From Eunapius fragilis (lineage: Eukaryota > Porifera > Demospongiae > Spongillida > Spongillidae), in NCBI GenBank assembly GCA_963681505.1, contig OY811980.1:3460553-3524552 (forward strand): a stretch of DNA of 64,000 nucleotides. The letters are read 5' to 3'. The translations under genes were made by a program, and so were the position numbers. The notes under the pieces were generated by a model. It searched no databases, was not told where the DNA came from, and worked only from the letters and a program-made list of their open reading frames with translations. Numbering within the stretch: the first letter of the stretch is position 1; every line of letters starts with the position of its first letter. This document shows, one piece after another, positions 21,828 through 54,973 of the stretch.

Positions 21828-23208
21828 ATGTGCAAATTATGCCTTCTAGTTCAACCGCCCTATGCGTATCCATGTAGCCACGTTTTGGAAGTGTTTCCGT
21901 ACTCATCGTTAGAATCAGTTAACGAGGAGGAACCCGTGACAGGAGATACACTTATTTTTAATCTCGGTATCCGAGTAAGTAATTTGTCACGTTCGTACAT
22001 AAAATTAGAATATTGTTTTGTTACAGCAAGTCTATGCCTCAAGTCTGCTTCGGAAGGATAAACTGGTCAAGTTCTTTAAATCGCTAGACCTATATCAGGA
22101 AGACGTCCGATTTCCTGCAAACGTATGTGTTACTAGACCTTATTCGATGAACGATGAACTCATTGTAATGCGTTCAATTGGATTAACGCCATTCCTTCAA
22201 TACACAAGTACTGGAGGAATACTGTTAATCCTATTCCAATTAAAAGTAAATAAATGCAATTCATCGTTCATCGAATAAGGTCTATAGACTAGGGAGCAGT
22301 TAGGGTTAGGCAGTTTCCAAGCTGGTCAGTGTATTTATGTTATACAGTAGAGAATACTTCAGTGTGGTGGTTTGGTCTTAAAAGAACTGTTTGACCATAT
22401 TCTACCACTTTTTAATGCATTGACATTTCATTATGTTTGGTGCTACACCCTGATATTGATGTTTGGTGCTACACCCTGATATTGATGTTTGGTGCTACGC
22501 CCTGATATTGATGTTTGATGCTACACCCTGATATTGATGTTTGTTGCTACACCCTGATATTGATGTTTGATGCTACGCCCTGATATTGATGTTTGATGCT
22601 ACACCCTGATCATGTTGTTTGGTGCATGCAGCCATGATTTTGTCATATTGTTTATATCCACTTTGCACACTTAGTTAAATGCAATACTACTATCTATATC
22701 ACATGCTGATTTTTTGGGCTTTAACCTCTTGCTTGATATTTATGTATATGGTCCTCTTTTTTTGAAGGTCTTTGGATTTTACAGATACAGTGCAGATGCT
22801 TTGTCATCACTCCCGAACATGTCCTATGAGAGACCACTCATGCGAGAGGGAGTAAACCCACCAAGACCACAACCACAACTAGACAGCCAACTGCGCTATT
22901 CTAACCTTAATAATTATTCTGATAACCGTGTTGAGAAGCCCTTGTTTGAGAGACAGAGACAAGTGACCAGTGTCCAGTCAGCTGAGGTTCGAGCACGCAA
23001 TACCACACCCAATGCCAGAAGGGAACAGAGTATCAATGCTGATGTCCCATTGAATGTTGATGCAAACCTTGAGACGTTGCGGGCAATGTTTCCAGATCAT
23101 TCTGTTGACGTACTGAAGCGAGCCCTATTGGTTGCAAATTGCGATGTGAATGAAGCTGTTTCTGCTATAATCAAACCAGATACCTCTACAAATAATTTTA
23201 ATGTATGA
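21828..23208 (+). CDS. CUE-domain protein, segment A copy
   Basis: Three exons in phase: 21828-21974, 22027-22122, 22768-23208, giving 227 residues. The C-terminal 50 residues form a CUE (ubiquitin-binding, three-helix) domain: [20 protein letters not shown], with the MFP signature and later the NEAVSAII dileucine-like end. Before it is a charged, Arg/Pro/Gln-rich linker ([11 protein letters not shown] onward). Exon 2 carries [20 protein letters not shown]. The protein is not identified beyond the domain. Exon 1 ([15 protein letters not shown] start) is the least certain part; it is missing from segment B. The gene ends about 350 bp from the stop of METTL4, tail to tail. Confidence 0.65.
22134..22284. 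mobile_element. 151-bp MITE in CUE intron, copy A only
   Basis: Terminal inverted repeats of 25 bp begin TAGACCTTATTCGATGAACG; the right end is the exact complement. The ends are compatible with a TA target site (Tc1/mariner-like, inferred). The matching intron in segment B (after 51610) lacks it. Confidence 0.85.
22433..22620. repeat. 26-bp minisatellite in CUE intron 2
   Basis: About seven copies of GTTTGGTGCTACACCCTGAT plus a short spacer. One more partial unit lies after the CUE gene at 23228. The segment B counterpart at 51745-51925 has a different number and order of variants. Confidence 0.93.
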
Positions 23209-23563
23209 TTATTTGAGTGTGTTTTATATGTTTGGTGCTACACCCTGATCATTTGTTTGGTGGTACCTATATTCAGACTTGCCTGTTGGAGTGATGCACT
23301 TACATGCTTTTGCTACACAAAATTTTTTGATATACTTATACTCCAGGTCCATGACACATCCAGGTAATACTTGCAATAAAAAGTGAAATTCTTGCAGAAT
23401 ATATATGCCCTGAGAGTAGGCATATAGAGTCACTGCTGCTTCATTGTGCAATCAACAACTTGAAGTGGGGAAGTGTCTCCTGAATTTATCTCCTGGAATT
23501 TCAGCACCTTTCAGAGAAATAATGATTTTCACGATCAACAGTAATACATAAAGGGGTGTGTGC

Positions 23564-25807
23564 TTAAGGTGAAGCTGCTACCTCATTTCCCCAGGACGTC
23601 CAACCGTGAAGCAGGTTACGGGCAAACAGTTCTAAACAGTGGGGAGCCTTTGGCAGATATGGAGCTAACAAATCTGCAACAGTAATTCAGGTCACATTAC
23701 ACAAGTCTTTGACATGTGCACATCTCTAGCTATCATATGTCTGTCAAGAGGTAACATCAACTTACTAACCTCCTAGATATGGCTTTTGGGAATGAACAGT
23801 GGTTGGAACACACATGAAAGCATTATGGTATGGAAGTGACACACTTGTCTCTGAACATAGAGACAGTCTTCTCTTCTTTGTATCAGGAGGAGTCCCATCA
23901 TTTTTGCTACTGGACAACAGACCATTTCCATGATACTCTCCAATCATGAGTATCTCGTATGGCTTTTTGTGCGTAGAGTCCATGGGAAAGACAAGCTCTC
24001 CCTCAGTGGTGACCTTTGTGCAGCAAAGTGATAGGTGAACATACAGCATCAAGTCCCTCTCCCTCTACAGAGAACCTTTATCCAGTGCCACTCTCCAACT
24101 GTGGATACATTCCAAGAAGGGAAAAGAGTGTCCTGTACAAATGTGTTTAGTTTCCTTTTGTTGGTGACCCACACAGCAATCAGAGCACCAGGAAGAGAGA
24201 TCAAAGGAACAGGCAATGATGTAAGCTGGCTATGAGAAATCCATTGGTACCTACCAAAATAACAATAAACAGTTATAAGCAGAAAACAAACCAGCAAACT
24301 TACTTTTTACCTCGAATAGCAGATCGATTTTCCCATGGTGGATCAATAACTACCAAGTTGTACCTTGCAGAGACTGGACTTACTAGGTTAGATGGCATGA
24401 CCACACAACCCTAGCTATTAATTGTACCAACCTAAATGTGACACCAGCAAGTCAATTTCACATATGTCTGACATAAAGAATGAGCTGAGACCCGGTATTT
24501 CATAAATGCCTTTTAGAGTCTTCAATTTAATAGCAAAATCACTCTTGTTGTGTACAAACTTTCCAAATAGGTCTCCTTCAAATGTACAGTCTAAAAATTG
24601 AGCTCAATAAATGACACCAAAGGTGACACAGTCCAAACATACCATGGGATAGATCTAACACACAGCCCTCAGCCATTACACACACATACTCATCTGCATC
24701 AGCTTTGGTTTTGTGGGGCTCCACTGGTGCTTATGTTCATGAGAAGTAGTTAAAGAGCTGATGCTATAAAAACTAACGATACCTAGTTGCTGTATGGGGA
24801 GGTATCCAATCGTTCTGCTAGCAGTGAGCAAGTTATTGTAGTGTTGCAATAAATCCCCTTGGATCTGGAGGGCAGTAAATGAATTCAACACTATGAGATC
24901 AAGGTCTAACGTTTTATTACCTCTGAGAAATACTCCTGCTGTGCTATTTCGCCTTCGTTTAGCTGCCGGAGTTTACATTTCTTTTTTCTCTTTCTTATTG
25001 ATTTGAATTTGCCCACCTAATAAGATATCGTTAGTAGCTTTACTCCTCTAGGCATGCTTATACTCAAAACCTAACGTAGAAAAGTGTATGCAATGTACTA
25101 ACACAAAAATAGTAGCGGCGGAAAGACAATAAAGGTATTTAATTGCCAAAAATCCTTTTAAAATGCAAAACATGATGCAAAGTAGATATGACAATTGCTC
25201 AAAATGGTTTGTCCAACTAGTAGTATTGTTAAAAAATACACGAATGGCATTAAAGTGGACAAAGCATATACCTGCTATGGGGGGAAAAAACGCATCCACC
25301 CCTTTTACCAAGTTCGGAGGTGTGATTCCCACTTTTCTACTAGTATAATAAAGAAGTTATTATTGATAACATCAGTGCCAGGTTGGGACATTTTGCATTC
25401 ATCGGGCAGGCCTATATCTTTCGTTGCGTTTTTTAAATTTTTTTTTAGCTTAAGTGGTGTCAGAGATAATATATAGAGGGATTGGAAACTCATCACGTGC
25501 GTCATTCAATGCAATGGTATGTCTGCGGAGCAATCATTATACCTACTACTATGGAAAGTCGCAGAACATGCGATAACATGGGTGGGACTTGCACCAAAAC
25601 TGTGCTAAAACAATCCATGCACAAGCTTCGGGCACAGCATGCGATCGTGATCGGACTAGACGAAGTCCACATGTCTGTACATGTATTACAATTCACCTGT
25701 TGGCATTTAGAGATGTGCGGTGCTGCCACAAGCTCAACCTTGAATTCATCTGGGTACCTTAGAACAACACCGTAACTTGTATTCAGAACAACTGTTGTGA
25801 GCCCCAT
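23564..25807 (-). CDS. METTL4: METTL4, N6-adenine methyltransferase, complete, copy A
   Basis: MT-A70 family methyltransferase. METTL4 proteins methylate adenosine N6, best shown on U2 snRNA (m6Am); a DNA role is debated. Nine exons on the minus strand: 25697-25807, 24921-25016, 24783-24864, 24643-24723, 24432-24590, 24304-24373, 24076-24250, 23770-24013, 23564-23673; every junction is in phase, total 375 residues, no internal stop. The catalytic DPPW is at residues 187-190 (NLVVIDPPWENRSAIRG). METTL4-type blocks follow: AVWVTNKRKLNTFVQ, FPSWNVSTVGEWHWIK, ELVFPMDS.HKKPYEIL, VHSQKPYLG, ELFARNLLHGWTSWGNE. The lysine-rich KRKKKCKL in exon 2 corresponds to the basic stretch of human METTL4. Exon 1 similarity is weak, but phase and conservation in copies B and C support it. 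Head-to-head with the DGCR8-like gene. Confidence 0.93.
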
Positions 25808-25872
25808 CAGGAATAAAATGAGCCGCGTGGGTACGAGATTAGCAATGTAATTGCTTCTTGGTTAATTAACAC
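25808..25872. promoter_or_regulatory. 65-bp putative bidirectional promoter between METTL4 and DGCR8-like
   Basis: Only 65 bp separate the two divergent start codons, so both 5' UTRs and core promoters must overlap or start inside the opposite gene. The interval has GGTTAATTAAC near the DGCR8-like start and no TATA box. It is conserved in segment B (54974-55038) and split by an inserted element in copy C. Inferred from spacing only. Confidence 0.6.
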
Positions 25873-28157
25873 ATGGAGGAAGCGGGTTGTTCTGTACCAT
25901 CTGACAGTGATGGCATAAGCGACCTGTTGGAGCTTCTTAGTGGAGACGTTCTGGAAGATGGAAGTGACGAAAGGTTTCCTGGAGAGATTGAGACGTCGTC
26001 GAAGTTCGAACTGGATGAGTGTGGAATTATGCCACTAGATGCATTCGGACTTGAAGAATCAGGCGCAAAACGTATTAAACTGGATCCGGAGGCGGAAGCA
26101 GAAGGAGTTCTTGTTCCCACTTCGTCTACTAGTAGTGTGGAAGAATTCGGAGGAGCTGGAGATACATTTCTAAGCACCCCAGGTCTTACGTTGTTATATA
26201 TCAACATGTGCGATGGACGAGGCCTAGCTATGTTGCAACTTGTATCATTTTGCACACCATATACATTTGCGTTCCTGGAAGGAAATTTTTTTCAGATGCT
26301 TGTGACTACCAGGAAGTAATGCACAAAAGATAAAAATTTGGTATTGCACTTATATATGGTGTCAGGTCTACCACACCCTGAACAAACAAATGACCAAAAA
26401 GGTTTCCCTTTCACATAGTGGCCTTGAAGATATGATTAGTGTGTAAAATGCATTTAGTTCCCATGCAAGTTTGATCACTTTCTGCCAACTTCAGAGCTTT
26501 TCCCCCTCATTGCCTTTCCCCCTCATTGTATTTCCCACTCATGAGAAGAAGAGACCAATCTAAAACAATTAACGTTGATTACTGCTGTATGGCTATTATT
26601 GCACTTGTCTTAATATATAAGTGATTCAATTTCTGACTGTAAAAGTTAACTGCATGTACTGTATGTGCGTGCAGGTCGTTATATGTATGAGCCGCCTTCG
26701 CTACCTGAAGGTTGGATTGCCCTTCAGCATTGCAGTGGAGGAACTGTTTATTTTCACAAAGCAAGTCGCACTTGCACATGGGCAAGACCCTACACAGTTA
26801 ATACATCCAGCACTATTCGGGTAAGTATTGTCATTAGCATCATATAGATGTGACCAACTTGTTATTCGTAGTAACAGAATTTGATACTAGATGTAGGTTA
26901 AGTGATTCTGTCTATGCTGCATTGTACTTCTGGCTGTATTTATTTATGCGATTAAAGGTTAAATTACACCATGGAATATTATGAAGTATCTTTTATATTT
27001 GTGGGTCACAGAAATATCGTGTTCCTGTGCATGCTATTCCATGTTTGGAAAAGTGGCTTTTTGAAGAATTGAAATGCGAACTTGCCCAAAAATGGCATGA
27101 AGATGCTGGAGGGAGAAAAGGTCTTCTCGTAAAGTTAGGTGCGTCATTTTCTTTGCTAATGTATCAAATGATTATTGAACCCTTAAAAGATATATAGAAT
27201 ACTTAACCATAAGAGGTGGAACTAAACTGAGGTTTTGAAGTTATTTATTTACCAGAACCTAATGCGATAATAGAAAATTTTCCATAAGGAACATGAAGGT
27301 TTTGAAGTGTATATGTAATTGAACACTCTTGCCATTGTAACTCTGTGATGGATACACCAATTTCCAGTGCATAAAAAAGAAGTTGCATAGCTCCCTCCCA
27401 TGCATTGCATGCAGCACCCCTAACACATTACCTCCCCTCCATGACACTGAATTGGTTTAGCATCGTTGTGCACGCCTGCAAATACATCACAGCCACAACA
27501 ACCAACTAAATACATAGCTCCTACCATACACAGCACAGAGTGGTGACCAAAACACACATAATTTTTGCAGGGTGAGTCCACACACCTGCATGAAAAAAAC
27601 TTCTGTGGGAAAAACCCGTGGGGAAAAATCCACACAGTAGGGAAAAGACAATTGAAGCACCGCTCACAAACAACACAACGTTCCCTTGGCCCCATCACTT
27701 CATGATCTGCTCTCTGGTAAGGTACACCTTTTTTCATCTTCCTGTCTGCATTGTGTAGAACATACAACACTCTTGGGGAAAATTTAACAGTCATGCAACT
27801 TACGCTTAGATGGAACTGTTACGCCCCTTCCACTATTAATACCACCCAAGGGGTCACCACGTGCTATCTGACCAGTCACATTGGGAGGGAGCTTAGTTTC
27901 TGTCTGTACAAATGACAGAAACGTATATGATCTAGGTATCCCTTAGGATATCAAATAAAAGTGCGTTAGGTCCCTTTTGTGGCAATGATCCATATCATTT
28001 TAAGTCATCACTCCTGAAGTTCATATTTTAATGTACTCTTAATGATCTCTTAATTGTTCTCCTTATTCTCCTCAGAGCCACCAAAGGTAAAAGAGTATCT
28101 TCTTTTAAGGTGGAGAGAAGACGACATGTTTAAGCAAAGTATTGCTTCTGCTGAAAG
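25873..28157 (+). CDS. DGCR8: DGCR8/Pasha-like protein, N-terminal exons, copy A
   Basis: DGCR8/Pasha is the RNA-binding partner of Drosha in pri-miRNA processing. Four in-phase exons: 25873-26182, 26675-26820, 27012-27138, 28076-28157. Residues 66-71 (KRIKLD) resemble a c-Myc-type nuclear signal. The WW domain is at about 113-143: LPEGWIALQHCSGGTVYFHK, then CTWARPY. After it comes VPVHAIPCLEKW, matching the DGCR8 sequence around the heme-ligating Pro-Cys (IPCL, Cys163 here, Cys352 in human). Exon 4 (KVKEYLLLRWREDD) may correspond to the helix before the RNA-binding domains. A possible fifth exon, 28642-28699, continues in phase (SDSSCRVSFTEDVNILVWAQ). No double-stranded-RNA-binding domain appears in the next 4 kb, so the gene is either truncated or continues beyond a long intron. 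Confidence 0.8.
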
Positions 28158-28902
28158 GTGAGTGTTACAATTGTTGATCTGTTCATAGCAAGGAACTTCT
28201 GTGAGCCATAGCCATGTTCGTCCTGGTATGCTGTGCCTTGGAAGCCAACCATTTATACCTGGTGGGAGTCCATCGATGTGTAATAATTGCATATGTCCAC
28301 AGTCACTTTTGGTATGCCTCAATATGTAAAATGCACTTCTGTGTTGCATTACTCTGTGGTGATGTATTACATGCCAGTTCCTTGTAATGGCTTTTTTCAC
28401 TGCACTATATGATTTAGTCTATTGATGGCTTTGTATGCACAGCTCCATATTTAATTGCAATTTGATACCACGTGTGGTATGTTGTGTAAACAAATACTTG
28501 TATCTTGCGGATCGATAATAAATACATGTACACTATTTAATACTATTAAATGACTTTAATTATAGCGATGGTAAAATCTTTGCGCACTGGAGCGCCCTCA
28601 GATGCAAATGTATCATATACCTCTTCCTTATTCACAATGAGTGACAGCAGCTGTCGAGTCTCATTCACAGAAGATGTCAATATCCTGGTCTGGGCACAAG
28701 TAACTTACTAATTGATCTACCAACATATTAGTAGGTTCCTGCAGTGCCTCTTTCATTCACGCTGTCATCCTCAAGCTCAGCTTCTCCTGCAGCCATTTTA
28801 TGACACAATCACAGACTGTACATTTAAAGTACATGCAATCACTACCACTTCTAATGTGGTATGATTTACATTCGGTATATGAATAAGGACACAGCAAAAG
28901 CA

Positions 28903-29428
28903 CTAAACCATTGCAGAGATGAACAGGGTAGCAAGCATCAGGACTGGCTCATTATACCATTGCAGAGATCACCAGGGCAGCAAACATCAGGACTGGTTCA
29001 TTATACCATTGCAGCGATGAACAGGGCAGCAAACATCAGGACTGGTTCATTATATCATTGCAGAGATCAACAGGGCAGCAAACATCAGGACAGGTTCATT
29101 ATACCATTGCAGCGATGAACAGGGCAGCAAACATCAGGACTGGTTCATTATACCATTGCAGAGATCAACAGGGCAGCAAACATCAGGACTGGTTCATTAT
29201 ACCATTGCAGCGATCAACAGGGCAGCAAATATCAGGACTGGTTCATTATATCATTGCAGCGATCAACAGGGCAGCAAACATCAGGACTGGTTCATTATAT
29301 CATTGCAGCGATCAACAGGGCAGCAAACATCAGGACTGGTTCATTAAACCATGGCAGAGATCAACAGGGCAGCAAACATCAGGACTGGTTCATTAAACCA
29401 TTGCAGAGATCACTGCAACTTTGTCTCC
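28903..29428. repeat. 49-bp minisatellite, copy A
   Basis: About ten copies of a unit containing CAACAGGGCAGCAAACATCA followed by GGACTGGTTCATTAT. The segment B array (58115-58815) has about fourteen. The long open frames across it come from the period not being a multiple of 3. Confidence 0.97.
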
Positions 29429-30334
29429 CCATGCACCAATGGAGTCCACTACAATTGGCACGCTCTACCATCCCAAATCTGTTTTTCTAGCCGAGACAAA
29501 GCATTCCACGCCAGAGTATAGTTGATCTCAGGATACAAAGGCAAAAAAAGCAGTGTGCACTCAAGATGCAAAACTGACCTGACACTTATATGGACTGAAA
29601 TTGAGCAAAGATCAGAGAATAACTCTCTGACCATCAACACTAGCATTGAGGTAGCATGAGGACATTAGAGGTCATCATGTTAAATTGCCTCTCATACTCA
29701 TAAAGTTGTGCATTAATATCTCCAATGTTCTCAAGGCACCTTGAACAATAAGTGGTAGCCTAACACAAGAAAGACTATCAATGTATGTGTAGGTATATCA
29801 TATGATAGGTTATGCCGTAAATGCATTTAGTCCATAATGATTATGGCAGCTTTAGCTGCTGTGTTCTCAATTGTAGGTCAACATCATTTGCAAACCATAC
29901 TGCAGCTTTGGTGTAATAGGTGTGCTCCCTAAGAATTCTCTGATATGGGAGTGGAATAGTTTAAGCAGTTCATAAGCTGAGCTGGACAGATGGTGAAGAT
30001 TCACTGTAACATGACAGGGTCCCATCACAAATATATTCCAGGCGGATGGGCATCATGAATTGCATTAACATTCTCTTTCATCATGTGCATCATGGAGAGA
30101 ACAATGCTCTGTAAATCCTCTTTCCTCTATAGAGTTCCTTTCAACCAGTTTGAAAGGAACTCTATGGCACTAGTTTGTATGACAGAGGCGAAGACCATAT
30201 GACATCATCATCCATCTGTAGCCCAAGAGAAGATATTGGCCGTGCAGTTAACCACGAACTTGTCTCTTTGGCAGAAACAGCCAACATTTGAGTAGAATAA
30301 ATAATTTTGTTTTCTGAATAATACCGCAAGTACA
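29429..30334. other. no gene seen; short hairpin
   Basis: Unique-looking sequence shared with segment B (58816-59750). It contains the inverted repeat ATAGAGTTCCTTTCAA at 30130-30145 with its complement at 30149-30166. Minus-strand frame 29449-29646 has no recognisable domain. Confidence 0.6.
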
Positions 30335-30349
30335 ATATAATATAACAAT

Positions 30350-30685
30350 CACAATAGATTGGGTGGTGGTAGGAAGACCTGCTTCCTCATAGGCACATGA
30401 TAGCACTGCGCAGTATGGCAAAAGACAGACGACATCTCAGCCAGCCCATAATGAGGGAATATGCTTTGTCTTGTTTTTCAGATAGTTGGTCAGCTAACCG
30501 TTTGTAAAAAGTGGTGGCTTCTCTCCCCATTGCACCCGAAGTGGAAAAAACTAGGGGTGTGAAAACACCATGTTCAACATCTCGAATGCGTTGTCTCTTC
30601 ATAGACTGTATCTATTTCTATGGTTATTGTACTTGGTAATTATGTTGTTATCATTGTGTTTGTTGATTGTATATATAACTTACTC
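30350..30685 (-). mobile_element. retroelement tail insertion with 15-bp target duplications, copy A only
   Basis: The inserted 336 bp carries a minus-strand frame with GAMGREATTFYKRLADQLSE and RCRLSFAILRSA, a retroelement ORF tail related to 7740-8066. It is flanked by exact 15-bp direct repeats ATATAATATAACAAT (30335-30349 and 30686-30700). Segment B has a single copy of that 15-mer and no insert at about 59740. A 5'-truncated fragment with a long target duplication is typical of target-primed reverse transcription. Confidence 0.8.
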
Positions 30686-31229
30686 ATATAATATAACAAT
30701 AACATGTATACAGTTGTGCATTAAAAAAAGAATAAAGAGAAAGATTAACTACGGAAATAAACAGGTATGAAATATGCTAAAGTGTTGAATCTGTTACTAG
30801 TGATGAGCAGGAAGTGTTGCTCCATCATCTAAGGCCCTAGACCACATCGCCATTTTACCCAGGAACCTCTCAAACACAAGCAGCAGAATACGTAATACAT
30901 ATTAAAAGAAATGTTCATAGACAACTACTGACAATATTTATCTGGCAATCATTGCTCTGGCATGTTACCTCTGCAACGTGATACTATTATTTTTCATTGA
31001 AATTGGCAGGATAGATAAGAACAACACAGACACATTATGTTTACCAGAGTACATGTACAAGAGATTATATAAATGTGATTATAACACATAGCATGCAATT
31101 CAACATCTTACAAGTGCATGAAAGGACATGGAACAAGACAGCAGTGCTGAAATATTTGCCTTCACCTGCTATCTTTGCCTTGTTGGGTACAGAATTTCAG
31201 CTGGGTGGGAGTGGCTATGGTCAAAGGTG

Positions 31230-32449
31230 AGCTGCCTCCACCTCAACACAAGTGGGCCATGTGACAGGCCTCCTCTAGGGTGTCCCGAAGTTTATTGTTA
31301 TTGTGGCAGGAGACAATGTCACCCACCAGGTGAGAGCATGAAGTCGCCCGAACATACACCCATGCTGTTTACCCCGTGATTCTATCATATCAACAACCAA
31401 GTTCTTGTCTCCATTGAAGTGACCAATGTGACCCATTACTCCAGTTCAATCTGCATTGACTAGTTCACATGTCTGAATGGGAAGCCGGTCTTCCACACCA
31501 CCTACGCCAAACTTGTAACTAACTTGTCTAACCTATTACTACTGTGCGTTTCACTTTATGTTAACATCATTTGTCCTTTTTGCGTCAATAACAATGACAT
31601 TGAACACTTTGTACAAAAATGGCTACCTAAAACCATTTTCTAAGAGATAAATATACATGAGACGGGAGAAAGTAGATTGGCCCCTCTTCCCCAATTACTG
31701 TTGCAAGTCAACCCAGCTCCGAACACTTGGGGTCATTTACCCTGTGCTTCCTGGCCTCTGCCTCTTCTGCTGCAGCCCTTCAGGCACACTTGCTGCTATT
31801 AGGATGGAAGGGGTTAAGGGAGAGGTCGCCATGATGTCATGGGCAGTATGTTTTTCTTTTTCTACCAATTGAGGACAAGTACATCCACTTAGCAGGTATG
31901 GCTTCGGTCTGGTGTAAGGCCACTGCGTGACTACCAAAATGGGCGTGATGGTAGAACTCAACAAACATGTTACGCAGCAGATGGTTGTGGTGAGTGATGA
32001 CATCACCATCCCATTTGCAGATAGTAGCATGGTTGCTAAGGCAGTCAAGAGCTAAGCCAGGGCATAAAGAGCACAAGGAGCCTCTAGCTGTGTCCATCCC
32101 GAGCCACCTAGGGTCAAGGTGCAGATCAAGACCAGGAGATGGTGTAACCAGCAGCCAGGATGTAGCATAAGGTGCTCAAGCCTTGTGGGCAGGTGATGGT
32201 GATGATGCTTCCAACAACAATGAGTACTAGTGATCTGTGTTATTTTTCTATTCCAATAATACATGCAAAAGGGCTGCAACAAAGTACATACATTTAAGTC
32301 CTATAAATATTCTAATTATCAATTGATCCTGAATGCGACAACAGTGACCGTGAGTTGGCTCGCATCAAAGTAAGGCTAAGCCTGCCGTACAATTGGTAGA
32401 TGGCATGAGACTTGGAGTAATTTCCCCTGGTGACTAGGTGACTTGCTAG
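31230..32449 (-). mobile_element. retroelement remains, antisense, copy A
   Basis: Minus-strand scraps in several frames: GDIVSCHNNNKLRDTLG-like near 31270-31330, the zinc-knuckle-like CSLCPGLALDCLSNHATICK at about 32010-32070, and the ORF end YGRLSLTLMRANSRSLLS near 32350-32400. Degenerate fossil with several breaks, also present in segment B. The order runs right to left across 1.2 kb. Confidence 0.6.
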
Positions 32450-32453
32450 GACT

Positions 32454-39391: not shown

Positions 39392-39499
39392 GTGAAGATG
39401 ATTCAGCAGCTCTCCGCCTATCTAATTATTTATGGGATGTGGTTTGTCGGTCATGCGCAGTGGAATGATCGTTGATTGAAACCATAGATTGCATAGTAA

Positions 39500-42400
39500 G
39501 GATTCTCTTTCACATAGTGGCCTGAAGATATGATTAGTGTATAAAATGCATTTAGTTCCCATGTTTGATCACTTTCTGCCAACTTCAGAGCTTTTCCCCC
39601 TCGTTTTCTCCCTCATTGCCTTTCATTGTATTTCCCACTCATGAGAAGAAGAGACCAATCTAAAAACATTAACATTGATTACTGCTAAATGGTTTATATG
39701 GTTATTATTGCACTTGTCTTAATATATAAGTGATTCAATTTCTGACTGTAAAAGTCAACTGCATGTACTGTACGTGTACATGTGTGCACGTCGTTATATG
39801 TATGAGCCGCCTTCGCTACCTGAAGGTTGGATCGCCCTTCAGCATTGCAGTGGAGGAACTGTTTATTTTCACAAAGCAAGTCGCACTTGCACATGGGCAA
39901 GACCCTACACAGTTAATACATCCAGCACTATTCGGGTAAGTATTGTCATTAGCATCATATGGATGAGACCAACTTGTTATTCATAGTAACAGAATTTGAG
40001 CACCAGATGTAGGTTAAGATCCTATGCTAGATTCTATCTGGCTGTGTTTATTTATGTGGCACTCGAGGGGGGGGGGGGGGTGGCAAAAAACTAAGTGCAA
40101 GACACCATCCCCAACTTTGAAGAGCTCATTGAGAGCAACACAAATATGCTTTTATTTCTTGCAGGGGGGTATGGGGAAAAAAGTTACGAGGTGTCAAAGT
40201 TTGGGGGGGGGGGCGGTCTTTGCCTTAAATGAAAAAAAATTTGCAACATCATACTGTTCGCAGTGTCCATAGGTTTTCCATGCGTGCGAAGATATGGTTT
40301 AACTCAACTATCTGCCTATCAGCACGATTCTATTTGTACGGAAATTAGTGAGGAGCCAACTGTATACACATGGTCACCAGGTCACATCTCACCCTACACA
40401 TAGTCACCAGGTCACACCCCTCAACCTACCATCGTCACCAGGTCACATCCCTCACCCTACACATGGTCACCAGGTCACACCCCTCTCCTTACACGTGGTC
40501 ACCAGGTCACACCCCCTCTCCTTACACATGGGTACCAGGTAATATCCCTTATCAAGTGATTGAGGCTAATTTGCAAAACCACATGCTTTCATCATGAATA
40601 TAACTATTTGCAACGCACAGCTTCAAATACCGCTGATAGACGAGATCAATCTACGACAGCATCAACAATCCAAGAGTTGCAAAGCGATTGCTGCTAAGGT
40701 AAAAGCTAGCGCTAGTCAGCCAAAAATAACTCCGTTGTTAAGACACGTTTTGGAGCAAGTTAATGTGAGAGGAATGCATGGGAATAACTACAACTACTTA
40801 TAAGCGCAATGCGGCAATGTGTAGTATAGTGTATCTATGCAAGTTTGTGCGCAATTTCTAATAGAGGTGCGGCCAATTCGATTGCGTCATGATTTTCAAG
40901 GGGCGTGGTCTATAAATGAGCGAGTTCGTAGGCAGAGGGGGGGGGGGGGGGGGGGTTGACCTGGACCTTCATTTTAAGAATTTTTGGGATGGTGTCTATA
41001 ACTTTTTTTGCCCCCCCCTCCCCCCCCTCGGTGGTACTGCAATAAATTACACCTTGGAAAAGAAATGTATATTATGAGGTGTCTTTTGTTTTGTGGGTCA
41101 CAGAAACATCGTGTTCCTGTGCATGCTATTCCATGTTTGGAAAAGTGGCTTTTTAAAGAATTGAAATGCGAACTTGCCCAAAAATGGCAAAAAGATGCTG
41201 GAGGGAGAAAAGGTCTTCTCATAAAGTTAGGTGCGTCAAATGTATCAATTGATTCTTAAAGGATTTCAAACATTGCATTCATAATGTATTGAAAAGGACT
41301 GGAACCTAATGCGATAATAGAGACCTTTCCATATAAGGAACATGAAGGTTTTGAAGTGTATGTATAATTGAATACTCTTGCCATTGTAACTCTGTGATGG
41401 ATACACCAATTTCCAGTGCGTAAAAAAGAAGTTGCATAGCTCCCTCTCATGCATTGCATGCAGCACCCCTAACACATTACCTCCCCTCCATGACACTGAA
41501 TTGGTTTAGCATCGTTGTGCACGCCTGCAAATACATCACAGCCACAACAACCAACTAAATACATAGCTCCTACCATACACAGCACGGAGTGGTGGCCAAA
41601 ACACACAGCAGGGTGGGTCCACATACCTGCATGAAAAAAACTTCTGTGGTAAAAACCCTTGGGGAAAAATCCACACAGTAGGGAAAAGACAATTGAAGCA
41701 CTACTCAAAAACAACACAATGTTCCCTTGGCCCCATCACTTCATGATCTGCTCTCTCTGGTTAAGGTACACCTTTTCTCATCTTCCTTGTCTGTGCACAT
41801 TGTGTAGACTCTTGGGGAAAATTTAACAGTCATGCACTTACGCTTAGACGGAACTGTTATGCCCCGCCCCTTCCACTCTATTAATACCACCAAAGGGGTC
41901 ACCACGTGCTATCCGACCAGTCACATTGGGAGGGAGCTTAGTTTCTGTCTGTACAAATGACAGAAACATATATGATCTAGGTATCCCTTAGGATATCAAA
42001 TAAAAGTGCGTTAGGTCCCATTTGTGGCAATGATCCATATCTTTATAAGTCATCAGTCAACACTCCTGAAGTTCACTTTTTAGTGTGCTCTTAATGATCT
42101 CTTAATTGTTCTCCTTATTCTCCTCAGAGCCACCAAAGGTAAAAGAGTATCTTCTTTTAAGGTGGAGAGAAGACGACATGTTTAAGCAAAATATTGCTTC
42201 TGCTTAATGGTGAGTGTTCCAATTGTTGATCTGTTCATAGCAAGGAACTTCTGTGAGCCATAGTCATGTTTGTCCTGGTATGTTGTGCCTTGCTAAGTGG
42301 AAGCCAACCATTTATACCTGGTGGGAATCCATCTATGTGTAATAATTTCATATGTCCACAGTCACTTTTGGTATGCCTCAATATGTGAAATGCACTTCTG

Positions 42401-42531
42401 TGTTGCATTACTCTGTGGTGATGTATTACATGCCAGTTCCTTGTAATGGCTTTTTTCACTGCACTGTATGATTTAGTCTATTGATGGCTTTGTATGCACA
42501 GCTCCATATTTAATTGCAATTTGATACCACG
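39500..42531 (+). pseudogene. DGCR8-like partial copy D
   Basis: Matches 26405-28480 of segment A. The WW exon (about 39796-39939) has lost its AG acceptor (CACGTCG instead of CAGGTCG). The IPCL exon (41104-41230) is intact and reads KHRVPVHAIPCLEKW. Exon 4 (from 42128) ends in a premature TAA. Exon 1 and METTL4 are absent. The introns carry an extra tandem repeat (40360-40545) and poly-G runs. Not a working gene. Confidence 0.85.
40360..40545. repeat. about 26-bp tandem repeat, copy D intron
   Basis: Units of the form CACATGGTCACCAGGTCACA with CCCTC spacers, about seven copies. The same array is in copy C (49010-49165) but not in A or B, so C and D share a sublineage. Confidence 0.9.
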
Positions 42532-43170
42532 TGCAGTCACGATTTATTTGGTGTTGTTTGAAGTAGTCACTTGGAAGTAGAGCAGTGTTCAACTTTGGGC
42601 GACATGTTGCCAGTGACCTACACACACACATTAGGCTATATCGCTGGCAACTTTTCCAGCTGACTAGTTGCCAGCGATATCATCTAGTGTGTTCCGGGCC
42701 TTTGAAAGTTGTACTAAGCTTGGTATCAAAATTAGATCTGCCCAATATTTAAAGGATTTTTTGTGTGGCCAGAAGACGCCTACCCAAAGCGGCCAATCAT
42801 TGAAAAATGGTAGTGAAGCAAGAAAGATGGAATCAAAGTAGAGATTAGTAACCAGCAGATCAATTGCACTAAGATTGGGCATCCATTAACGTTGGGACCA
42901 GACAAACCCTAAATCCTTAGGGCCATTGGTCCTACCTAAACCATTTATTTTCTAAATAGGGGAATGTGGTGCACTAACTCTTATGTTGTGTTTCATGGCA
43001 TAGAGGCTGTTTGTGTATGGTCCAGTATCAAGGTAAATGATGATTTTCATATGTACCAAATGGGACAGCAATGCAAGAAATTTAGTTGTCTACCATTTGG
43101 ATATTTTTATTTAGATATGTGCATGAAAATTTAGATATGTGACACATTATAGCCTTCCGAGCTGCCCCTG
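42532..43170. other. intergenic; small inverted repeat
   Basis: No gene. An inverted repeat ATATCGCTGGCAAC / GTTGCCAGCGATAT lies at about 42638-42681. Otherwise nothing seen. Confidence 0.6.
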
Positions 43171-47166: not shown

Positions 47167-47203
47167 ATGGAATAGCCCAAATTTGCTTCTTGGTTAATTA
47201 ACA

Positions 47204-50200
47204 CATGGAGGTAGCAGGTTGTTCTGTACCATCTTACACTGATGGCATAAGCGACCTGTTGGATCTTCGATTCTCAGTGGAGACGTTCTGGAAGATGAAA
47301 GTGACGAAAGATTTCTGGAGAGATTGAGGCGTCATCAAAGTTCGAATTGGATGAGTGTGGAATTATATGCCACTAGATGCATTCGGATTTAAAGAATCAG
47401 GCACTAAATGTATTAAACTGGATCCGAGGCGGAAGCAGAAGGAGTTCTTATTCCCACTTCGTCTAGTGTGGAAGAATTCGGAGGAGCTGGAGATACATTT
47501 CTAAGCACCCCAGGTATTACGTTGTTATATATCAACATGTGCGATGGACGAGGCCTAGCTATGTTGCAACTTGTATCATTTTGCACACCATATACATTTG
47601 CGTTCCTGGAAGGAATTGTTTTTCAGATGCTTGTGACTACCAGGAATTAGACAATAGCGGAAGCAATCTGATTGGTCAATTGCAGGTATCTAAACGCGGT
47701 AGAAACCTTGAGAGGGACTCTAAGTGCCATTGGGGGGGATTCTAAGTGCCTCGGGCACTTAGAATCCCTCCCACTGGCACTTAGAATCCCTCCCATTATC
47801 TTATCGTTATCGCGTTGCGCGATAATTTATTGGTTGCTACGTACGCGTTCTATTGTCTAAATTGGTTAGACCCTTAGTAGCGCCCTCGCTACCGCTCGGG
47901 ACGCTACAGCCCAGGGCCCTCGGGGATTCTAAATCACGTAGATCCCTCGGTTTCAGTGTCTAACCTATATGTAATACACAAAACACAAAAGATTAAAGTT
48001 TGGTATTGCACTTATATATGGTGTCAGGTCTACCACACCCTGAACAAACAAATGACCAAAAAGGTTTCCCTTTCACATAGTGGCCTTGAAGATATGACTA
48101 GTGTGTAAAATGCATTTAGTTCCCCTGTTTGATCACTTTCTGCCAACTTCAGAGCTTTTCCCCATCACTGCCTTTCCCCCCCTCATTGTATTTCCCTTCA
48201 TTGCCTTCCCCCCCCCCCCCTCATTGCTTTCCCCCCCTCATTGTATTTCCCACTCATGAGAAGAAGAGACCAATCTAAAAACATTAACATTGATTACTGC
48301 CAAATGGTATATATGGTTATTATTGCACTTGTCTTAATATATAAGTGATTTAATTTCTGACTGTAAAAGTCAACTGCATGTACTGACTGTACTTGTGTGC
48401 AGGTCGTAATATGTATGAGCCGCCTTCGCTACCTAAAGGTTGGATCGCCCTTCAGCATTGCAGTGGAGGAACTGTTTATTTTCACAAAGCAAGTCGCACT
48501 TGCACATGGGCAAGACCCTACACAGTTAATACATCCAGCACTATTCGGGTAAGTATTGTCATTAGCATCATATGGATGTGACCAACTTGTTATTCGTAGT
48601 AGCAGAATTTGAGCACTTGATGTAGGTTAAGATCCTATGCTAGATTCTATCTATGCTGCATTGTACTTCTGGCTGTATTTATTTACATGGTACTCGGGGG
48701 GGGGGGGGGGGGGGGGGGGGCAACTTTGAAGAACTCATTGAGAGCATCACAAATATGCTATTATTTCTTGCAGGGGGGGGGGTATGGGGAAAAAAGTAGG
48801 TGTCAAAGTTTGAGGGGGGGGGGGGGGTCTTTGCATTAAATGAATTTTTTGAAAAAAATTAATAACATTTTTTTGCAACATCTTACTGTTCGTAGTGTCC
48901 ATAGGTTTTCTATGTGTGCGAATATATGGTTTAACTCAACTATCTGCCTATCAGCACGATTCTATATTATTATTATTTGTACGATAATTAGTGAGGGGCC
49001 AACTGTATACACATAGTCATCAGGTCACACCCCTCAACCTACCATCATCACCAGGTCACATCCCTCACCCTACACATGGTCACCAGGTCATACCCCTCTC
49101 CTTACAGGTGGTCACCAGGTCACACCCCCTCTCCTTACACATGGTTACCAGGTAATATCCCTTATCAAGTGATTGAGGCTAATTTTACCACACGCTTTCA
49201 TCACGAATATAACTATTTGCAACGCACAGCTTCAAATACCGCTGATAGACGAGATCAATCTATGACAGCATCAACAATCCAAGAGTTGCAAAGCGATTGC
49301 TGCTAAGGTAAAAGCTAGCGCTAGTCAGCCAAAAATAACTCCGTTGTTAAGACACGTTTTGGAGCAAGTTAATGTGAGAGGAATGCATGGGAATAACTAC
49401 AACTACTTATAAGCGCAATGCGGCAATGTGTAGTATAGTGTATCTATGCAAGATTTCTAATAGAGGTGCAATCAATTCGATTGCGTCATGATTTTTAAGG
49501 GGCTTGGTCTAAAATGGGCGTGGTCTAAAATGGGCGTGGTCGTAGGCGGAGAGGGGGGGGGGGGGTTGACCTGGACCTTGATTTTAAGAATTTTTGGGAT
49601 GGTGTCTATTTTTTTTTGCCCCCCCCCCCCCCTCGGTGGTTACTGCAATAAATTACATCAAAGAAATGTATATCATGAGGTATCTTTTGTATTTGTGGGT
49701 CACAGAAACATCGTGTTCCTGTGCATGCTATTCCATGTTTGGAAAAGTGGCTTTTTGAAGAATTGAAATGCGAACTTGCCCAAAAATGGCATGGAGGTGC
49801 TGGAGGGAGAAAAGGTCTTCTCATAAAGTTAGGTGCGTCAAATGTATCAATTGATTATTGAATCCTTATAGGATTTCAGACATTGCATTCATAATATACT
49901 GAAAAGGACCGGAACCTAATGCGATAATAGAGACCTTTCCATATAAGGAACATGAAGGTTTTGAAATGTATATGTAATTGAACACTCTTGCCATTGTAAC
50001 TCTGGATACACCAATTTCCAGTGCGTAAAAAAGAAGTGACATAGCTCCCTCCCATGCATTGCATGCAGCACCCCTAACACCCCCCATGACACTGAATTGG
50101 TTTAGCATCGTTGTGCACGCCTGCAAATACATCACAGCCACAACAATCAACTAAATACATAGCTCCTACCATACACAGCACGAAGTGGTGGCCAAAACAC

Positions 50201-50762
50201 ACAGCAGGGTGGGTCCACATACCTGCATGAAAAAAACTTCTGTGGGAAAATCCACACAGTAGGAAAAAGACAATTGAAGCACCGCTCACAAACAACACAA
50301 CGTTCCCTTGGCCCCATCACTTCATGATCTGCTCTCTGGTTAAGGTACACCTTTTTTCACCTTCCTGTCTGCATTGTGTAGAACATACAACACTCTTGGG
50401 GAAAAGTTAACAGTCATACACTTACGCTTAGACGGAACTGTTACGCCCCTTCCACTATTAATACCACCAAAGGGGTCACCACGTGCTGTCTGACTAGTCA
50501 CATTAGAAGGGAGCTTAGATTTAACTCCGTACAAACGACAGAAACGTGTATGATCTAGGTATCCCTTAGAATATCAAATAAAAGTGTGTTAGGTCCCTTT
50601 TGTGGCAATCCATATCTTTATAAGTCATCAGTCAACACTCCTGAAGCTCACTTTTTAGTGTGCTCCTAATGATCTTCCTTATTCTCCTCAGAGTCACCAA
50701 AGGTAAAAGAGTATCTTCTTTTAAGGTGGAGAGAAGACGATGTTTAAGCATCTGCTGAAAGG
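47204..50762 (+). pseudogene. DGCR8-like partial copy C
   Basis: Exon 1 (from 47204, MEVAGCSVPS) is frameshifted. The WW exon (48403-48548) is intact with a good acceptor. The IPCL exon (49706-49832) is intact (KHRVPVHAIPCLEKW). Exon 4 (from 50692) has a deletion and ends early. The exon 5-like sequence near 51190 is shortened. No double-stranded-RNA-binding domain. Decayed. Confidence 0.87.
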
Positions 50763-51422
50763 TGAGTGTTACAATTGTTGATCTGTTCATAGCAAGGAAC
50801 TTCTGTGAGCCATAGTCATGTTCGTCCTGGTATGCTGTGCTTTGGAAGCCAACCATTTATACCTGGTGGGAGTCCATCGATGTGTAATAATTTCATATGT
50901 CCACAGTCACTTTTGGTATGCCTCAATATGTGAAATGCACTTCTGTGTTGCATTACTCTGTGGAGATGTATTACATGCCAGTTCCTTGCAATGGCTTTTT
51001 TCACTGCACTGTATGATTTAGTCTATTGATGGCTTTGTATGCACAGCTCCATATTTAATTGCAATTTGATACCACGTGTGGTATGTTGTGTAAACAAATA
51101 CTTGTATCTTGAAGATTGATAATAAATACATGTACACTTATTTAATATGACTTCAATTATAGCGATGGTTAAATCTTCATATACTAGTTCAAATGAGTGA
51201 CAGCAGCTGTCGGGTCTCATTCACAGAAGATATATCCTGGTCTGGGCACAAGTAACTTACTAATCTACCAACATATTAGCAGGTTCCTGCAGTGCCTCTT
51301 CCGTTCACGCTGTCATCCTCAAGCTCAGCTTCTCCTGCAGCCATTTTATGACATAATTACAGACAGTACAATTAAAGTACATGCAATCACTACCACTTCT
51401 AATGTGGTATGATTAAGTATGC

Positions 51423-51514: not shown

Positions 51515-52387
51515 CAAGTCTATGCCTCAAGTCTGCTTCGGAAGGATAAACTGGTTAAGTTCTTTAAATCGCTAGACCTATATCAAGAAGACGTCCGATT
51601 TCCTGCAAACGTATGTGTTTATAAGCTAGGGAGCAGTTTCCAAGCTGGTCAGTGTTTTTATGTTATACTTACTTCATTGTGGTGGTTAGGGCTTAAAAGA
51701 ACTGTTTGACCCTATTTTTAATGCATTGACAACATTTCATTATGTTTGGTGCTACATCCTGATTTGATGTTTGATGCTACACCCTGATATTGATGTTTGG
51801 TGCCACACCCTGATATTGGTGTTTGATGCTACACCCTGATATTGATGTTTGGTGCTACACCCTGATATTGATGTTTGGTGTTGCACCCTGATATTGGTAT
51901 TTAAAGCTACATCTTGATATTAATATATGGTCCTCTTTTTTTGAAGGTCTTTGGTTTTTACAGATACAGTGCAGATGCTTTGTCATCACTCCCGAACATG
52001 TCCTATGAGAGACCACTCATGCGAGAGGGACTAAACCCACCAAGACCACAACCACAACTAGACAGCCAACTGCGCTATTCTAACCTTAATAATTATTCTG
52101 ATAACCGTGTTGAGAAGCCCTTGTTTGAGAGACAGAGACAAGTGACCAGTGTCCAGCCAGCTGACGTTCGAGCACGCAATAGCACACCCAATGCCAGAAG
52201 GGAACAGAGTATCAATGCTGATGTCCCATTGAATGTTGATGCAAACCTTGAGACGTTGCGGGCAATGTTTCCAGATCATTCTGTGACGTACTGAAGCGAG
52301 CCCTATTGGTTGCAAATTGCGATGTGAATGAAGCTGTTTCTGCTATAATCAAACCAGACACCTCTACAAATAATTTTAATGTATGAT
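51515..52387 (+). pseudogene. CUE-domain gene, segment B copy, broken
   Basis: Exon 2 (51515-51610) and exon 3 (from 51947) match copy A, but exon 1 is missing because the duplication starts inside intron 1. In addition one T is missing in CATTCTGTGACG near 52283, shifting the frame inside the CUE domain so that it ends after MFPDHSV. If the base is confirmed missing, this copy cannot make the CUE domain. Confidence 0.85.
51745..51925. repeat. 26-bp minisatellite, copy B
   Basis: Counterpart of 22433-22620, about seven units of GTTTGGTGCTACACCCTGAT with a different pattern of variants. Confidence 0.92.
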
Positions 52388-52737
52388 TATTTGAGTGTGT
52401 TTTATATGTTTGGTGCTACACCCTGATCATTTATGTTCGGTGGTAACCTATGCTCAGACTTGCCTATTGGAGTGATGCATTTACATGCTTTTGCTTACAC
52501 AATTTTTTTAAATATACTTATACTCCAGGTCATGACACATCCAGGTAATAAAAAGTGAAATTCTTGCAGAATATATGCCCTGAGAGTAGGCATATAGAGC
52601 CACTGCTGCTTCATTGTGCAATCAACAACTTGAAGTGGTTCCGGAAGTGTCTCCTGAATTTATCTCCTGGAATTTCAGCACCTTTCAGAGAAATAATGAT
52701 TTTCACGATCAACAGTAATACATAGAGGGGTGTGTGC

Positions 52738-54973
52738 TTAAGGTGAAGCTGCTACCTCATTTCCCCAGGACGTCCAACCGTGAAGCAGGTTACGGGCAAA
52801 CAGTTCTAAACAGTGGGGAGCCTTTGGCAGATATGGAGCTAACAAATCTGCAACAGTAATTCAGGTCACATTACACAAGTCTTTGACATGTGCACATCTC
52901 TAGCTATCATATGTCTTGTCAAGAGGTAACATCAACTTACTAACCTCCTAGATATGGCTTTTGGGAATGAACAGTGGTTGGAACACACATGAAAGCATTA
53001 TGGTATGGAAGTGACACACTTGTCTCTGGACATAGAGACAGTCTTCTCTTCTTTGTATCAGGAGGAGTCCCATCATTTTCGCTACTAGACAACAGACCAT
53101 TTCCATGATACTCTCCAATGATGAGTATCTCATATGGCTTTTTGTGCATAGAGTCCATGGGAAAGACCAGCTCTCCCTCAGTGGTGACCTTTGTACAGCA
53201 AAGTGATAGGTGAACATACAGCATCAAATCCCTCTCCCTCTACAGAGAACCTTTATCCAGTGCCACTCTCCAACTGTGGATACATTCCAAGAAGGGAAAA
53301 GAGTGTCCTGTACAAATGTGTTTAGTTTCCTTTTGTTGGTGACCCACACAGCAATCAGAGCACCAGGAAGAGAGATCAAAGGAACAGGCAATGATGTAAG
53401 CTGGCTATGAGAAATCCATTGGTACCTACCAAAATAACAATAAACAGTTATAAGCAGAAAACAAACCTGCAAACTTACTTTTTACCTCGAATAGCAGATC
53501 GATTTTCCCATGGTGGGTCAATAACTACCAAGTTGTACCTTGCAGAGACTGGACTTACTAGGTTAGATGGCATGACCACACAACCCTAGCTATTAATTGT
53601 ACCAACCTAAATGTGACACCAGCAAGTCAATTTCACATATGTCTGACATAAAGAATGAGCTGAGACCCGGTATTTCATAAATGCCTTTTAGAGTCTTCAA
53701 TTTAATAGCAAAATCACTCTTGTTGTGTACAAACTTTCCAAATAGGTCTCCTTCAAATGTACAGTCTAAAAATTGAGCTCAATAAATGACACCAAAGGTG
53801 ACACAGTCCAAACATACCATGGGATAGATCTAACACACAGCCCTCAGCCATTACACACACATACTCATCTGCATCAGCTTTGGTTTTGTGGGGCTCCACT
53901 GGTGCTTATGTTCATGAGAAGTAGTTAAAGAGCTGATGCTATAAAAACTAACGATACCTAGTTGCTGTATGGGGAGGTATCCAATCGTTCTGCTAGCAGT
54001 GAGCAAGTTATTGTAGTGTTGCAATAAATCCCCTTGGATCTGGAGGGCAGTAAATGAATTCAACACTATGAGATCAAGGTCTAACGTTTTATTACCTCTG
54101 AGAAATACTCCTGCTGTGCTATTTCGCCTTCGTTTAGCTGCCGGAGTTTACATTTCTTTTTTCTCTTTCTTATTGATTTGAATTCGCCCACCTAATAAGA
54201 TATCGTTAGTAGCTTTACTCCTCTAGGCATGCTTATACTCAAAACCTAACGTAGAAAAGTGTATGCAATGTACTAACACAAAAATAGTAGCGGCGGAAAG
54301 ACAATAAAGGTATTTAATTGCCAAAAATCCTTTTAAAATGCAAAACATGATGCAAAGTAGATATGACAATTGCTCAAAATGGTTTGTCCAACTAGTAGTA
54401 TTGTTAAAAAATACACGAATGGCATTAAAGTGGACAAAGCATATACCTGCTATGGGGGGAAAAAACGCATCCACCCCTTTTGACAAGTTCGGAGGTGTGA
54501 TTCCCACTTTTCTACTAGTATAATAAAGAAGTTATTATTGATAACATCAGTGCCAGGTTGGGACATTTTGCATTCATCGGGCAGGCCTATATTTTTCGTT
54601 GCGTTTTTTAAATGCTTAAGTGGTGTCAGAAATAATATATAGAGGGATTGGAAACTCATCACGTGCGTCATTCAATGCAATGGTATGTCTGCGGAGCAAT
54701 CATTATACCTACTACTATGGAAAGTCGCAGAACATGCGATAACATGGGTGGGACTTGCACCAAAACTGTGCTAAAACAATCCATGCACAAGCTTCGGGCA
54801 CAGCATGCGATCGTGATCGGACTAGACGAAGTCCACATGTCTGTACATGTATTACAATTCACCTGTTGGCATTTAGAGATGTGCGGTGCTGCCACAAGCT
54901 CAACCTTGAATTCATCTGGGTACCTTAGAACAACACCGTAACTTGTATTCAGAACAACTGTTGTGAGCCCCAT
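52738..54973 (-). CDS. METTL4: METTL4, complete, copy B
   Basis: Exons 54863-54973, 54096-54191, 53958-54039, 53818-53898, 53607-53765, 53479-53548, 53251-53425, 52945-53188, 52738-52847, all the same lengths as copy A, frame open for 375 residues. DPPW and all family motifs are unchanged. I see five amino-acid differences from A: Lys to Glu in exon 2 (VGEFKS), and four in exon 8 (SMHKK, ILIIG, SSSEND, CPETS). Splice signals are intact, so both copies look functional on paper. Intron 1 is about 8 bp shorter than in copy A because a poly-T run is lost. Confidence 0.92.

What the first reader, a model, noticed from the sequence alone, without database searches (positions are those of the whole stretch)
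23564..28157. METTL4 and a DGCR8/Pasha-like gene share a 65-bp head-to-head promoter, and the pair has been duplicated
Seen: two divergent ATGs 65 bp apart, conserved in segments A and B, with METTL4 fully open in both. Known: DGCR8 acts in microRNA maturation; METTL4 is an N6-adenine methyltransferase acting on U2 snRNA. Inference: the genes may be co-expressed through one promoter, linking adenine methylation and small-RNA machinery in this animal. METTL3, not METTL4, is the enzyme known to mark pri-miRNAs, so a functional link is only a possibility.
Basis: partly seen in the sequence, partly recalled or inferred. Interest (0 to 1): 0.78.

Follow-up and report, generated by a model that had tools for sequence, protein, structure and literature searches.

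The report
Sponge METTL4–DGCR8 head-to-head gene pair
In a freshwater sponge the genes METTL4 and DGCR8 start back to back 65 bases apart, as many neighbours do in compact genomes; METTL4 and only the front part of DGCR8 are present a second time nearby, and nothing in the sequence shows that the two genes work together.

Summary
METTL4 (minus strand, ATG at 25807) and a DGCR8/Pasha gene (plus strand, ATG at 25873) diverge from 65 bp, and the arrangement recurs 29 kb downstream. METTL4 is intact in both copies (375 aa, nine exons). DGCR8 is not duplicated as a gene. Copy A has only exons 1-4 (N-terminus and WW/RHED). The exons for its two double-stranded-RNA-binding domains were found once, 10-11 kb beyond copy B's exon 4 and outside the window. 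Two older, broken 5' relics (C, D) lie between A and B without METTL4.

A and B differ at 1.0% of aligned bases, with METTL4 and DGCR8 exons and introns alike (0.6-0.8%). The identical 65-bp spacer is therefore uninformative (about 61% chance without constraint). Assembly statistics match Eunapius fragilis odEunFrag1.1. Head-to-head genes are common in Amphimedon (45% of gene models), and METTL4's head-to-head partner in human is NDC80.

Most likely this is an ordinary gene pair, probably with a bidirectional promoter, plus a young tandem duplication that truncates DGCR8. A functional METTL4-microRNA link is unsupported. Transcription starts, expression and adjacency in other sponges could not be tested.

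The parts
23564..25807 (-). METTL4 copy A, nine exons: 25807-25697, 25016-24921, 24864-24783, 24729-24643, 24590-24428, 24363-24304, 24250-24076, 24013-23770, 23673-23564; 375 aa, DPPW motif
   Evidence: spliced model with GT-AG borders, no internal stop; MT-A70 E 3.4e-31; best solved relative 7cv6 E 2.8e-42
25808..25872 (.). 65-bp spacer between the two ATGs, presumed shared promoter; GC 0.40, 3 CpG; each gene's frame meets an in-frame TAA in it
   Evidence: transcription starts not known
25873..28157 (+). DGCR8 copy A, 5' part only: exons 25873-26182, 26675-26820, 27012-27138, 28076-28157 (N-terminus, WW/RHED with IPCL, linker). Reading on past exon 4 meets a stop at once (AGG TGA); polyadenylation-signal words at 28517 and 28545
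   Evidence: DGCR8 RHED matches E about 1e-12; exon model; signal words; no second copy of the downstream DGCR8 exons
22511..32451 (.). segment A of the duplication; left flank holds the CUE-domain gene
   Evidence: self-BLAST; 1.0% substitutions to B
51742..61506 (.). segment B of the duplication; right flank leads to the dsRBD exons
   Evidence: self-BLAST
52738..54973 (-). METTL4 copy B, nine exons, 375 aa, intact
54974..55038 (.). 65-bp spacer of copy B, identical to that of A
55039..64000 (+). DGCR8 copy B, part in the window: exons 55039-55348, 55843-55988, 56180-56306, 57287-57368. The gene goes on beyond the window (window-scale positions of coding pieces): exon 5 65374-65529, dsRBD1 67399-67653, dsRBD2 68472-68789, C-terminal pieces 68843-68923 and 68974-69072. 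The only copy found with dsRBDs
   Evidence: an exon between exon 5 and dsRBD1 may be missing from the model
39498..42533 (+). copy C: DGCR8 exons 2-4 only; exon 1 not found, exon 2 acceptor AG reads AC, stop at the end of exon 4; no METTL4
47183..51414 (+). copy D: DGCR8 exons 1-4, exon 1 frameshifted, exon 4 with 12 bp missing and a stop; homology begins 22 bp upstream of the ATG; no METTL4
22714..23208 (+). open frame holding the last exon of a CUE-domain gene, tail-to-tail with METTL4-A and inside the duplicated segment
   Evidence: ORF; CUE E 5.6e-06; self-BLAST

Best explanation
Shown by sequence: METTL4 and DGCR8 are divergent neighbours with a 65-bp ATG-to-ATG gap. A segment of about 10 kb holding the last exon of a CUE-domain gene, all of METTL4 and DGCR8 exons 1-4 is present twice (A and B), about 1% apart, with two older broken DGCR8 5' relics between. 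Only B leads on to dsRBD exons.

Inferred: an ordinary head-to-head pair of RNA-related genes, probably transcribed from one short bidirectional promoter, as many pairs may be in compact sponge genomes. A young tandem duplication then gave a second complete METTL4 and a truncated DGCR8. No special METTL4-DGCR8 cooperation is needed.
For: Gene identities and models. 65-bp spacer and in-frame stops. DGCR8 exons from exon 5 on only 3' of B. The CUE gene lies left of A and the dsRBD exons right of B, with no second copy of the sequence outside the segments in the 114 kb beyond repeats and short stretches: the order a tandem duplication leaves. A/B divergence is even over the genes: METTL4 coding 9/1128, METTL4 introns 7/1107, DGCR8 exons 5/665, DGCR8 introns 11/1616. 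C and D lesions. In Amphimedon 18,054 genes (45%) could be transcribed head-to-head and 11,379 have start sites within 1 kb (PMC4773876 passages). Human METTL4 is head-to-head with NDC80.
Against: No transcription-start or expression data, so promoter sharing is itself unproven. No head-to-head frequency is available for this species, which seems less gene-dense than Amphimedon. Adjacency in other sponges is untested and could prove old and conserved. Exons 2-4 of relics C and D differ from A and B by 1.5-2.5% while introns 2-3 differ by 7.3-8.2%, which a plain story of dead fragments does not fully explain. The left flank of the segment is more diverged (15/651, 2.3%) than the genes.
Confidence: 0.8

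Rival explanations
1. The pair is a selected co-regulation module: one promoter sets METTL4 and DGCR8 levels together because adenine methylation and microRNA maturation are coupled in this animal.
For: Spacer of 65 bp with both starts bounded by in-frame stops. Both genes belong to families that act on RNA (functions recalled).
Against: METTL4's partner in human is NDC80. Spacer identity between A and B has about 61% probability without constraint at 0.75% divergence. The older copy D kept only 22 bp of the spacer and no METTL4. Three full-text searches listed no paper on such a pair (listings only, 20 of 31 seen).
Confidence: 0.08
2. The A/B duplication is an assembly artefact: two haplotypes of one locus laid in tandem.
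For: A/B divergence of 1.0% is of an order that alleles of an outbred animal could show (recalled). The assembly was made with HiCanu and purge_dups, and curation removed 8 haplotypic duplications (PMC12616128).
Against: No N in the 114 kb examined. Sequence right of A and left of B does not match the other copy's flank beyond repeats (matches over 150 or 250 bases were listed). C and D at 84-92% nucleotide identity to A, B and each other point to older real duplications here. BUSCO duplicates are only 1.2%.
Confidence: 0.12
3. Copy A is a working 5' cassette: it is spliced over about 37 kb into the shared dsRBD exons, or ends in intron 4 and makes a dsRBD-less RHED protein of about 222 aa that could dimerise with and modulate DGCR8.
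For: Exons 1-4 of A are intact with GT-AG borders. Reading past exon 4 meets a stop at once and polyadenylation-signal words lie at 28517 and 28545. Exons of C and D changed less than their introns.
Against: A is too young for intactness to mean selection: 4 nonsynonymous and 1 synonymous difference to B in 221 codons. C and D, the older cassettes, are broken. A 37-kb intron across other genes would be unusual (inference). The same signal words lie in intron 4 of B, so they do not set A apart.
Confidence: 0.07

Closest known systems
Human METTL4-NDC80 head-to-head pair (PMC2774331, PMC7817982; one passage each)
   Same: METTL4 shares a bidirectional promoter with a divergent neighbour.
   Different: The partner is NDC80, not DGCR8. 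No duplication was looked for there.
Bidirectional promoters of the sponge Amphimedon queenslandica (PMC4773876, passages)
   Same: Short divergent intergenic gaps in a sponge genome.
   Different: Promoter analysis there used RNA-seq-supported gene ends; here only ATGs are known. E. fragilis has 26,614 annotated protein-coding genes in 218.91 Mb against 40,122 models in Amphimedon.
METTL4 (MT-A70 family); closest solved structure 7cv6, 'Methyltransferase-like protein 2' (that it is Arabidopsis METTL4 is recalled)
   Same: MT-A70 domain over its full length with DPPW; aligned over residues 134-370.
   Different: Two nearly identical copies here; activity untested.
DGCR8/Pasha (3le4, 2yt4, 6v5b)
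   Same: WW/RHED with IPCL, and two dsRBDs 3' of copy B.
   Different: Copy A lacks the dsRBDs; C and D are broken 5' relics.

Membership tests
METTL4 | MT-A70 methyltransferase domain with DPPW motif | tested here: met
   PF05063 E 3.4e-31, profile positions 1-172 of 172, for the copy A protein; DPPW read in both translations
METTL4 | closer to METTL4 than to METTL3/METTL14 | tested here: met
   best solved match 7cv6 E 2.8e-42; none of its 6 matches at E <= 0.01 is named METTL3 or METTL14. The genome's METTL3 is a separate gene on C6. That 7cv6 is a METTL4 is recalled; no tree was built
METTL4 | N6-methylation of U2 snRNA or other substrate | not testable with these tools
   needs enzyme assay
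DGCR8/Pasha | WW-containing RHED with IPCL cysteine | tested here: met
   residues 7-59 match 3le4 and 4e5r at about 1e-12; IPCL present in exon 3 of A, B, C and D. Pfam's WW model alone scores 19.3 bits, below its cut-off of 26.9
DGCR8/Pasha | two dsRBDs (copy B) | tested here: met
   hand-joined downstream exons match 2yt4 E 1.9e-24 in two stretches; dsRBD2 to C-terminus matches 6v5b E 2.1e-19
DGCR8/Pasha | two dsRBDs (copy A) | tested here: not met
   dsRBD pieces of B have one match each in the 114 kb and dsRBD2 one in the genome. A genome-wide dsRBD profile search put none of 20 matches in the window, but it also missed B's own dsRBD2, so alone it is weak
DGCR8/Pasha | C-terminal helix that binds Drosha | tested here: inconclusive
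   leans met: the alignment to 6v5b runs through the candidate exon to its LQKLRQEMQKLA, but that stretch alone scored -0.6 bits
Bidirectional-promoter gene pair | divergent genes with transcription starts within 1 kb | tested here: inconclusive
   ATGs are 65 bp apart; transcription starts unknown
Bidirectional-promoter gene pair | transcription of both genes from the spacer | not testable with these tools
   needs CAGE, 5' RACE or reporter assay
Conserved functional gene neighbourhood | adjacency kept in related species | not testable with these tools
   the collections offered are described as prokaryote, viral, phage, plasmid and metagenome, and I made no search for other sponges in them; human METTL4 pairs with NDC80

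The most novel reading that the evidence does not exclude
In freshwater sponges METTL4 and DGCR8 form a conserved bidirectional unit, and repeated 5' duplication of DGCR8 supplies dsRBD-less RHED proteins or alternative 5' exons that tune the Microprocessor.
Probability: 0.04. Interest if true: 0.6.

Novelty: new member of a known kind. Interest (0 to 1): 0.2.

Why it matters
If the pair were conserved and co-expressed, it would suggest a link between METTL4 methylation and microRNA processing early in animals. As it stands, its value is practical: annotators of this genome should expect two nearly identical METTL4 genes, one full DGCR8, one truncated DGCR8 and two relics, and RNA-seq mapping must allow for copies that differ by 1%.

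Tried and rejected
The idea that the 65-bp spacer is conserved by selection was rejected as unsupported: A/B differences are as low in METTL4 and DGCR8 introns as in exons. The idea that the 5' end of DGCR8 mRNA forms an unusually stable hairpin (Microprocessor self-cleavage, recalled from vertebrates) was tested on 25808-26182 and not supported: z = -0.86, 22 of 100 shuffles fold as well.

Full-text searches: METTL4+DGCR8+sponge gave 31 papers, 20 listed, disease or RNA-modification papers by their titles; METTL4+NDC80+bidirectional gave 2; METTL4+Porifera+adenine methylation gave 0. Nothing listed reports the pair.

Corrected on the way: exon borders used were off by one or two bases and were set right. 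Searches failed because a file was not where expected, and were redone. I first read the C7 MT-A70 matches on the wrong strand; on the right strand they look like METTL14 (the label is recalled).

Full report
What is there. The window lies at G000:C10:3460553-3524552 of a 218,937,333-base genome in 24 contigs. Size, contig count, C1 of 24.99 Mb and C22 of 5.50 Mb match Eunapius fragilis odEunFrag1.1: 218.91 Mb, 23 chromosomes plus a 28.5-kb mitochondrial genome, longest scaffold 24.99 Mb, chromosome 22 of 5.5 Mb (PMC12616128, outline with abstract and passages). This is identification by assembly statistics, not by sequence comparison.

The two genes. On the minus strand 25807-23564 spells a nine-exon gene with GT-AG borders and a 375-aa product. 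It holds a full MT-A70 domain (E 3.4e-31), the DPPW motif, and matches 7cv6 best (E 2.8e-42). On the plus strand, exons at 25873-26182, 26675-26820, 27012-27138 and 28076-28157 encode an N-terminus that I did not search and a WW/RHED that matches DGCR8 chains 4e5r and 3le4 at about 1e-12, IPCL included. The ATGs are 65 bp apart, and both frames meet a stop inside the spacer, so both coding starts are well placed unless an upstream intron exists.

DGCR8 is complete only at copy B. Translation of the flank beyond the window shows exon 5, dsRBD1, dsRBD2 and C-terminal exons between window-scale 65.4 and 69.1 kb. Joined by hand, they match DGCR8: 2yt4 at E 1.9e-24 in two stretches, and 6v5b at E 2.1e-19 from dsRBD2 to the C-terminal helix (the helix alone scored -0.6 bits). 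Each of the seven pieces has one full match in the 114 kb, and exon 5 one further weak partial match (24 aa, 42%). The dsRBD2 piece has a single match in the genome. A genome-wide dsRBD profile search gave 20 matches, none in the window and one at window-scale 67555; it missed B's own dsRBD2, so it is weak evidence of absence by itself. Copy A therefore has exons 1-4 and no dsRBD exons that I could find. Reading past its exon 4 meets a stop at once, and polyadenylation-signal words follow in intron 4 of both A and B.

Four 5' copies, not two. The RHED query found 13 matches: 12 on C10, falling in four copies (A, B, C, D), and one weak match on C22, which on its coding strand reads as another WW domain (by eye). 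C (39498-42533) lacks a recognisable exon 1, has AC in place of the exon 2 acceptor AG and a stop at the end of exon 4. D (47183-51414) has a frameshifted exon 1 and a 12-bp loss with a stop in exon 4. D's match to A starts 22 bp upstream of the DGCR8 ATG, so it contains neither METTL4 nor most of the spacer.

How it arose (inference). The CUE-domain gene lies at A's left and the dsRBD exons lie at B's right, the order expected after tandem duplication of a segment starting in a 26-bp repeat array near 22.5 kb and ending near 32.45 kb. A and B differ at 93 of 9,241 aligned bases over 22780-32451. By class: METTL4 coding 9/1128, METTL4 introns 7/1107, spacer 0/65, DGCR8 exons 1-4 5/665, DGCR8 introns 1-3 11/1616, right flank 30/3419 (with the tandem repeat 28900-29420 left out), left flank 22900-23563 15/651. 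Coding changes are METTL4 4 synonymous and 5 nonsynonymous, DGCR8 1 and 4. The exons and the spacer are not set apart from the introns; only the left flank is more diverged. Zero changes in 65 bases has a probability of about 0.61 at 0.75% divergence.

A result that does not fit neatly. Between the older copies, exons 2-4 differ less than introns 2-3: A-C 9/355 against 76/1045, A-D 8/343 against 83/1039, B-C 8/355 against 78/1045, B-D 5/343 against 85/1039, C-D 10/343 against 110/1925 (Fisher p from 1.6e-6 to 0.035; the pairs are not independent). The exon changes are mostly nonsynonymous (1 synonymous and 4-7 nonsynonymous in the four A/B-C/D comparisons; 0 and 8 for C-D; codons with stops or gaps left out), so this is not textbook protein constraint. 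Gene conversion, past constraint before inactivation, or intron misalignment around indels could each contribute.

Function. The sequence supports an ordinary divergent pair. In Amphimedon 18,054 genes (45%) could be transcribed head-to-head and 11,379 have starts within 1 kb (PMC4773876, passages). A DGCR8/Pasha gene is expected: Drosha was found in both demosponges of one study and Pasha in one of the two, grouping with other sponges (PMC4752309, passages), and this genome has RNase III matches (5). METTL4's head-to-head partner in human is NDC80 (PMC2774331 and PMC7817982, one passage each). That METTL4 and DGCR8 cooperate is not supported by any result here and cannot be excluded either.

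Artefact check. The 114 kb contains no N. Flanks outside the segments do not match across copies except for repeats (with length filters of 150 and 250 bases). Older copies of the same exons lie between. These favour a true duplication, but read depth was not available. The genome's METTL3 also has a nearby inverted second copy (96.6% over 1,285 bp), and a dsRBD-encoding gene on C19 has a neighbour copy 22 kb away, so local duplication is not special to this pair.

Verdict. Real head-to-head pair, plausible bidirectional promoter, young duplication truncated in DGCR8, no evidence for a functional link. Interest 0.2.

Noticed in passing
L001 and L002 (G000:C6:10225753 minus and 10250158 plus): METTL3 is present twice, inverted, about 24 kb apart, 96.6% identical over 1,285 bp; the second copy's open frame is shorter (404 against 475 aa).
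   Followed up: partly
L014 and L015 (G000:C19:5596595 and 5618463): A dsRBD-encoding gene has two local copies 22 kb apart, about 91-92% identical over the two longest matches of the fetched stretches.
   Followed up: partly
39498-42533 and 47183-51414: Exons 2-4 of the broken DGCR8 copies C and D are less diverged from A/B than their introns, yet most exon changes are nonsynonymous.
   Followed up: partly
38375-39482 and 45272-46431: A stretch overlapping a caspase/peptidase-C14-like frame (weak Pfam match, below cut-off) is duplicated at 84% just upstream of copies C and D.
   Followed up: no
35056-35649: ISXO2-like (IS1595) DDE transposase frame on the minus strand, between segments A and B (E 1.1e-19).
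   Followed up: no
28907-29412 and 58119-58821: A 49-bp tandem repeat inside the duplicated segment has 10.3 copies in A and 14.3 in B.
   Followed up: no
L031, about window-scale 71.5 kb: A KH-domain frame lies downstream of the DGCR8 dsRBD exons (E 5e-05).
   Followed up: no
L005 and L006 (G000:C7:9214105 and 9214495, minus): Two exons that read like METTL14 on the coding strand (label recalled), separate from METTL4 and METTL3.
   Followed up: partly
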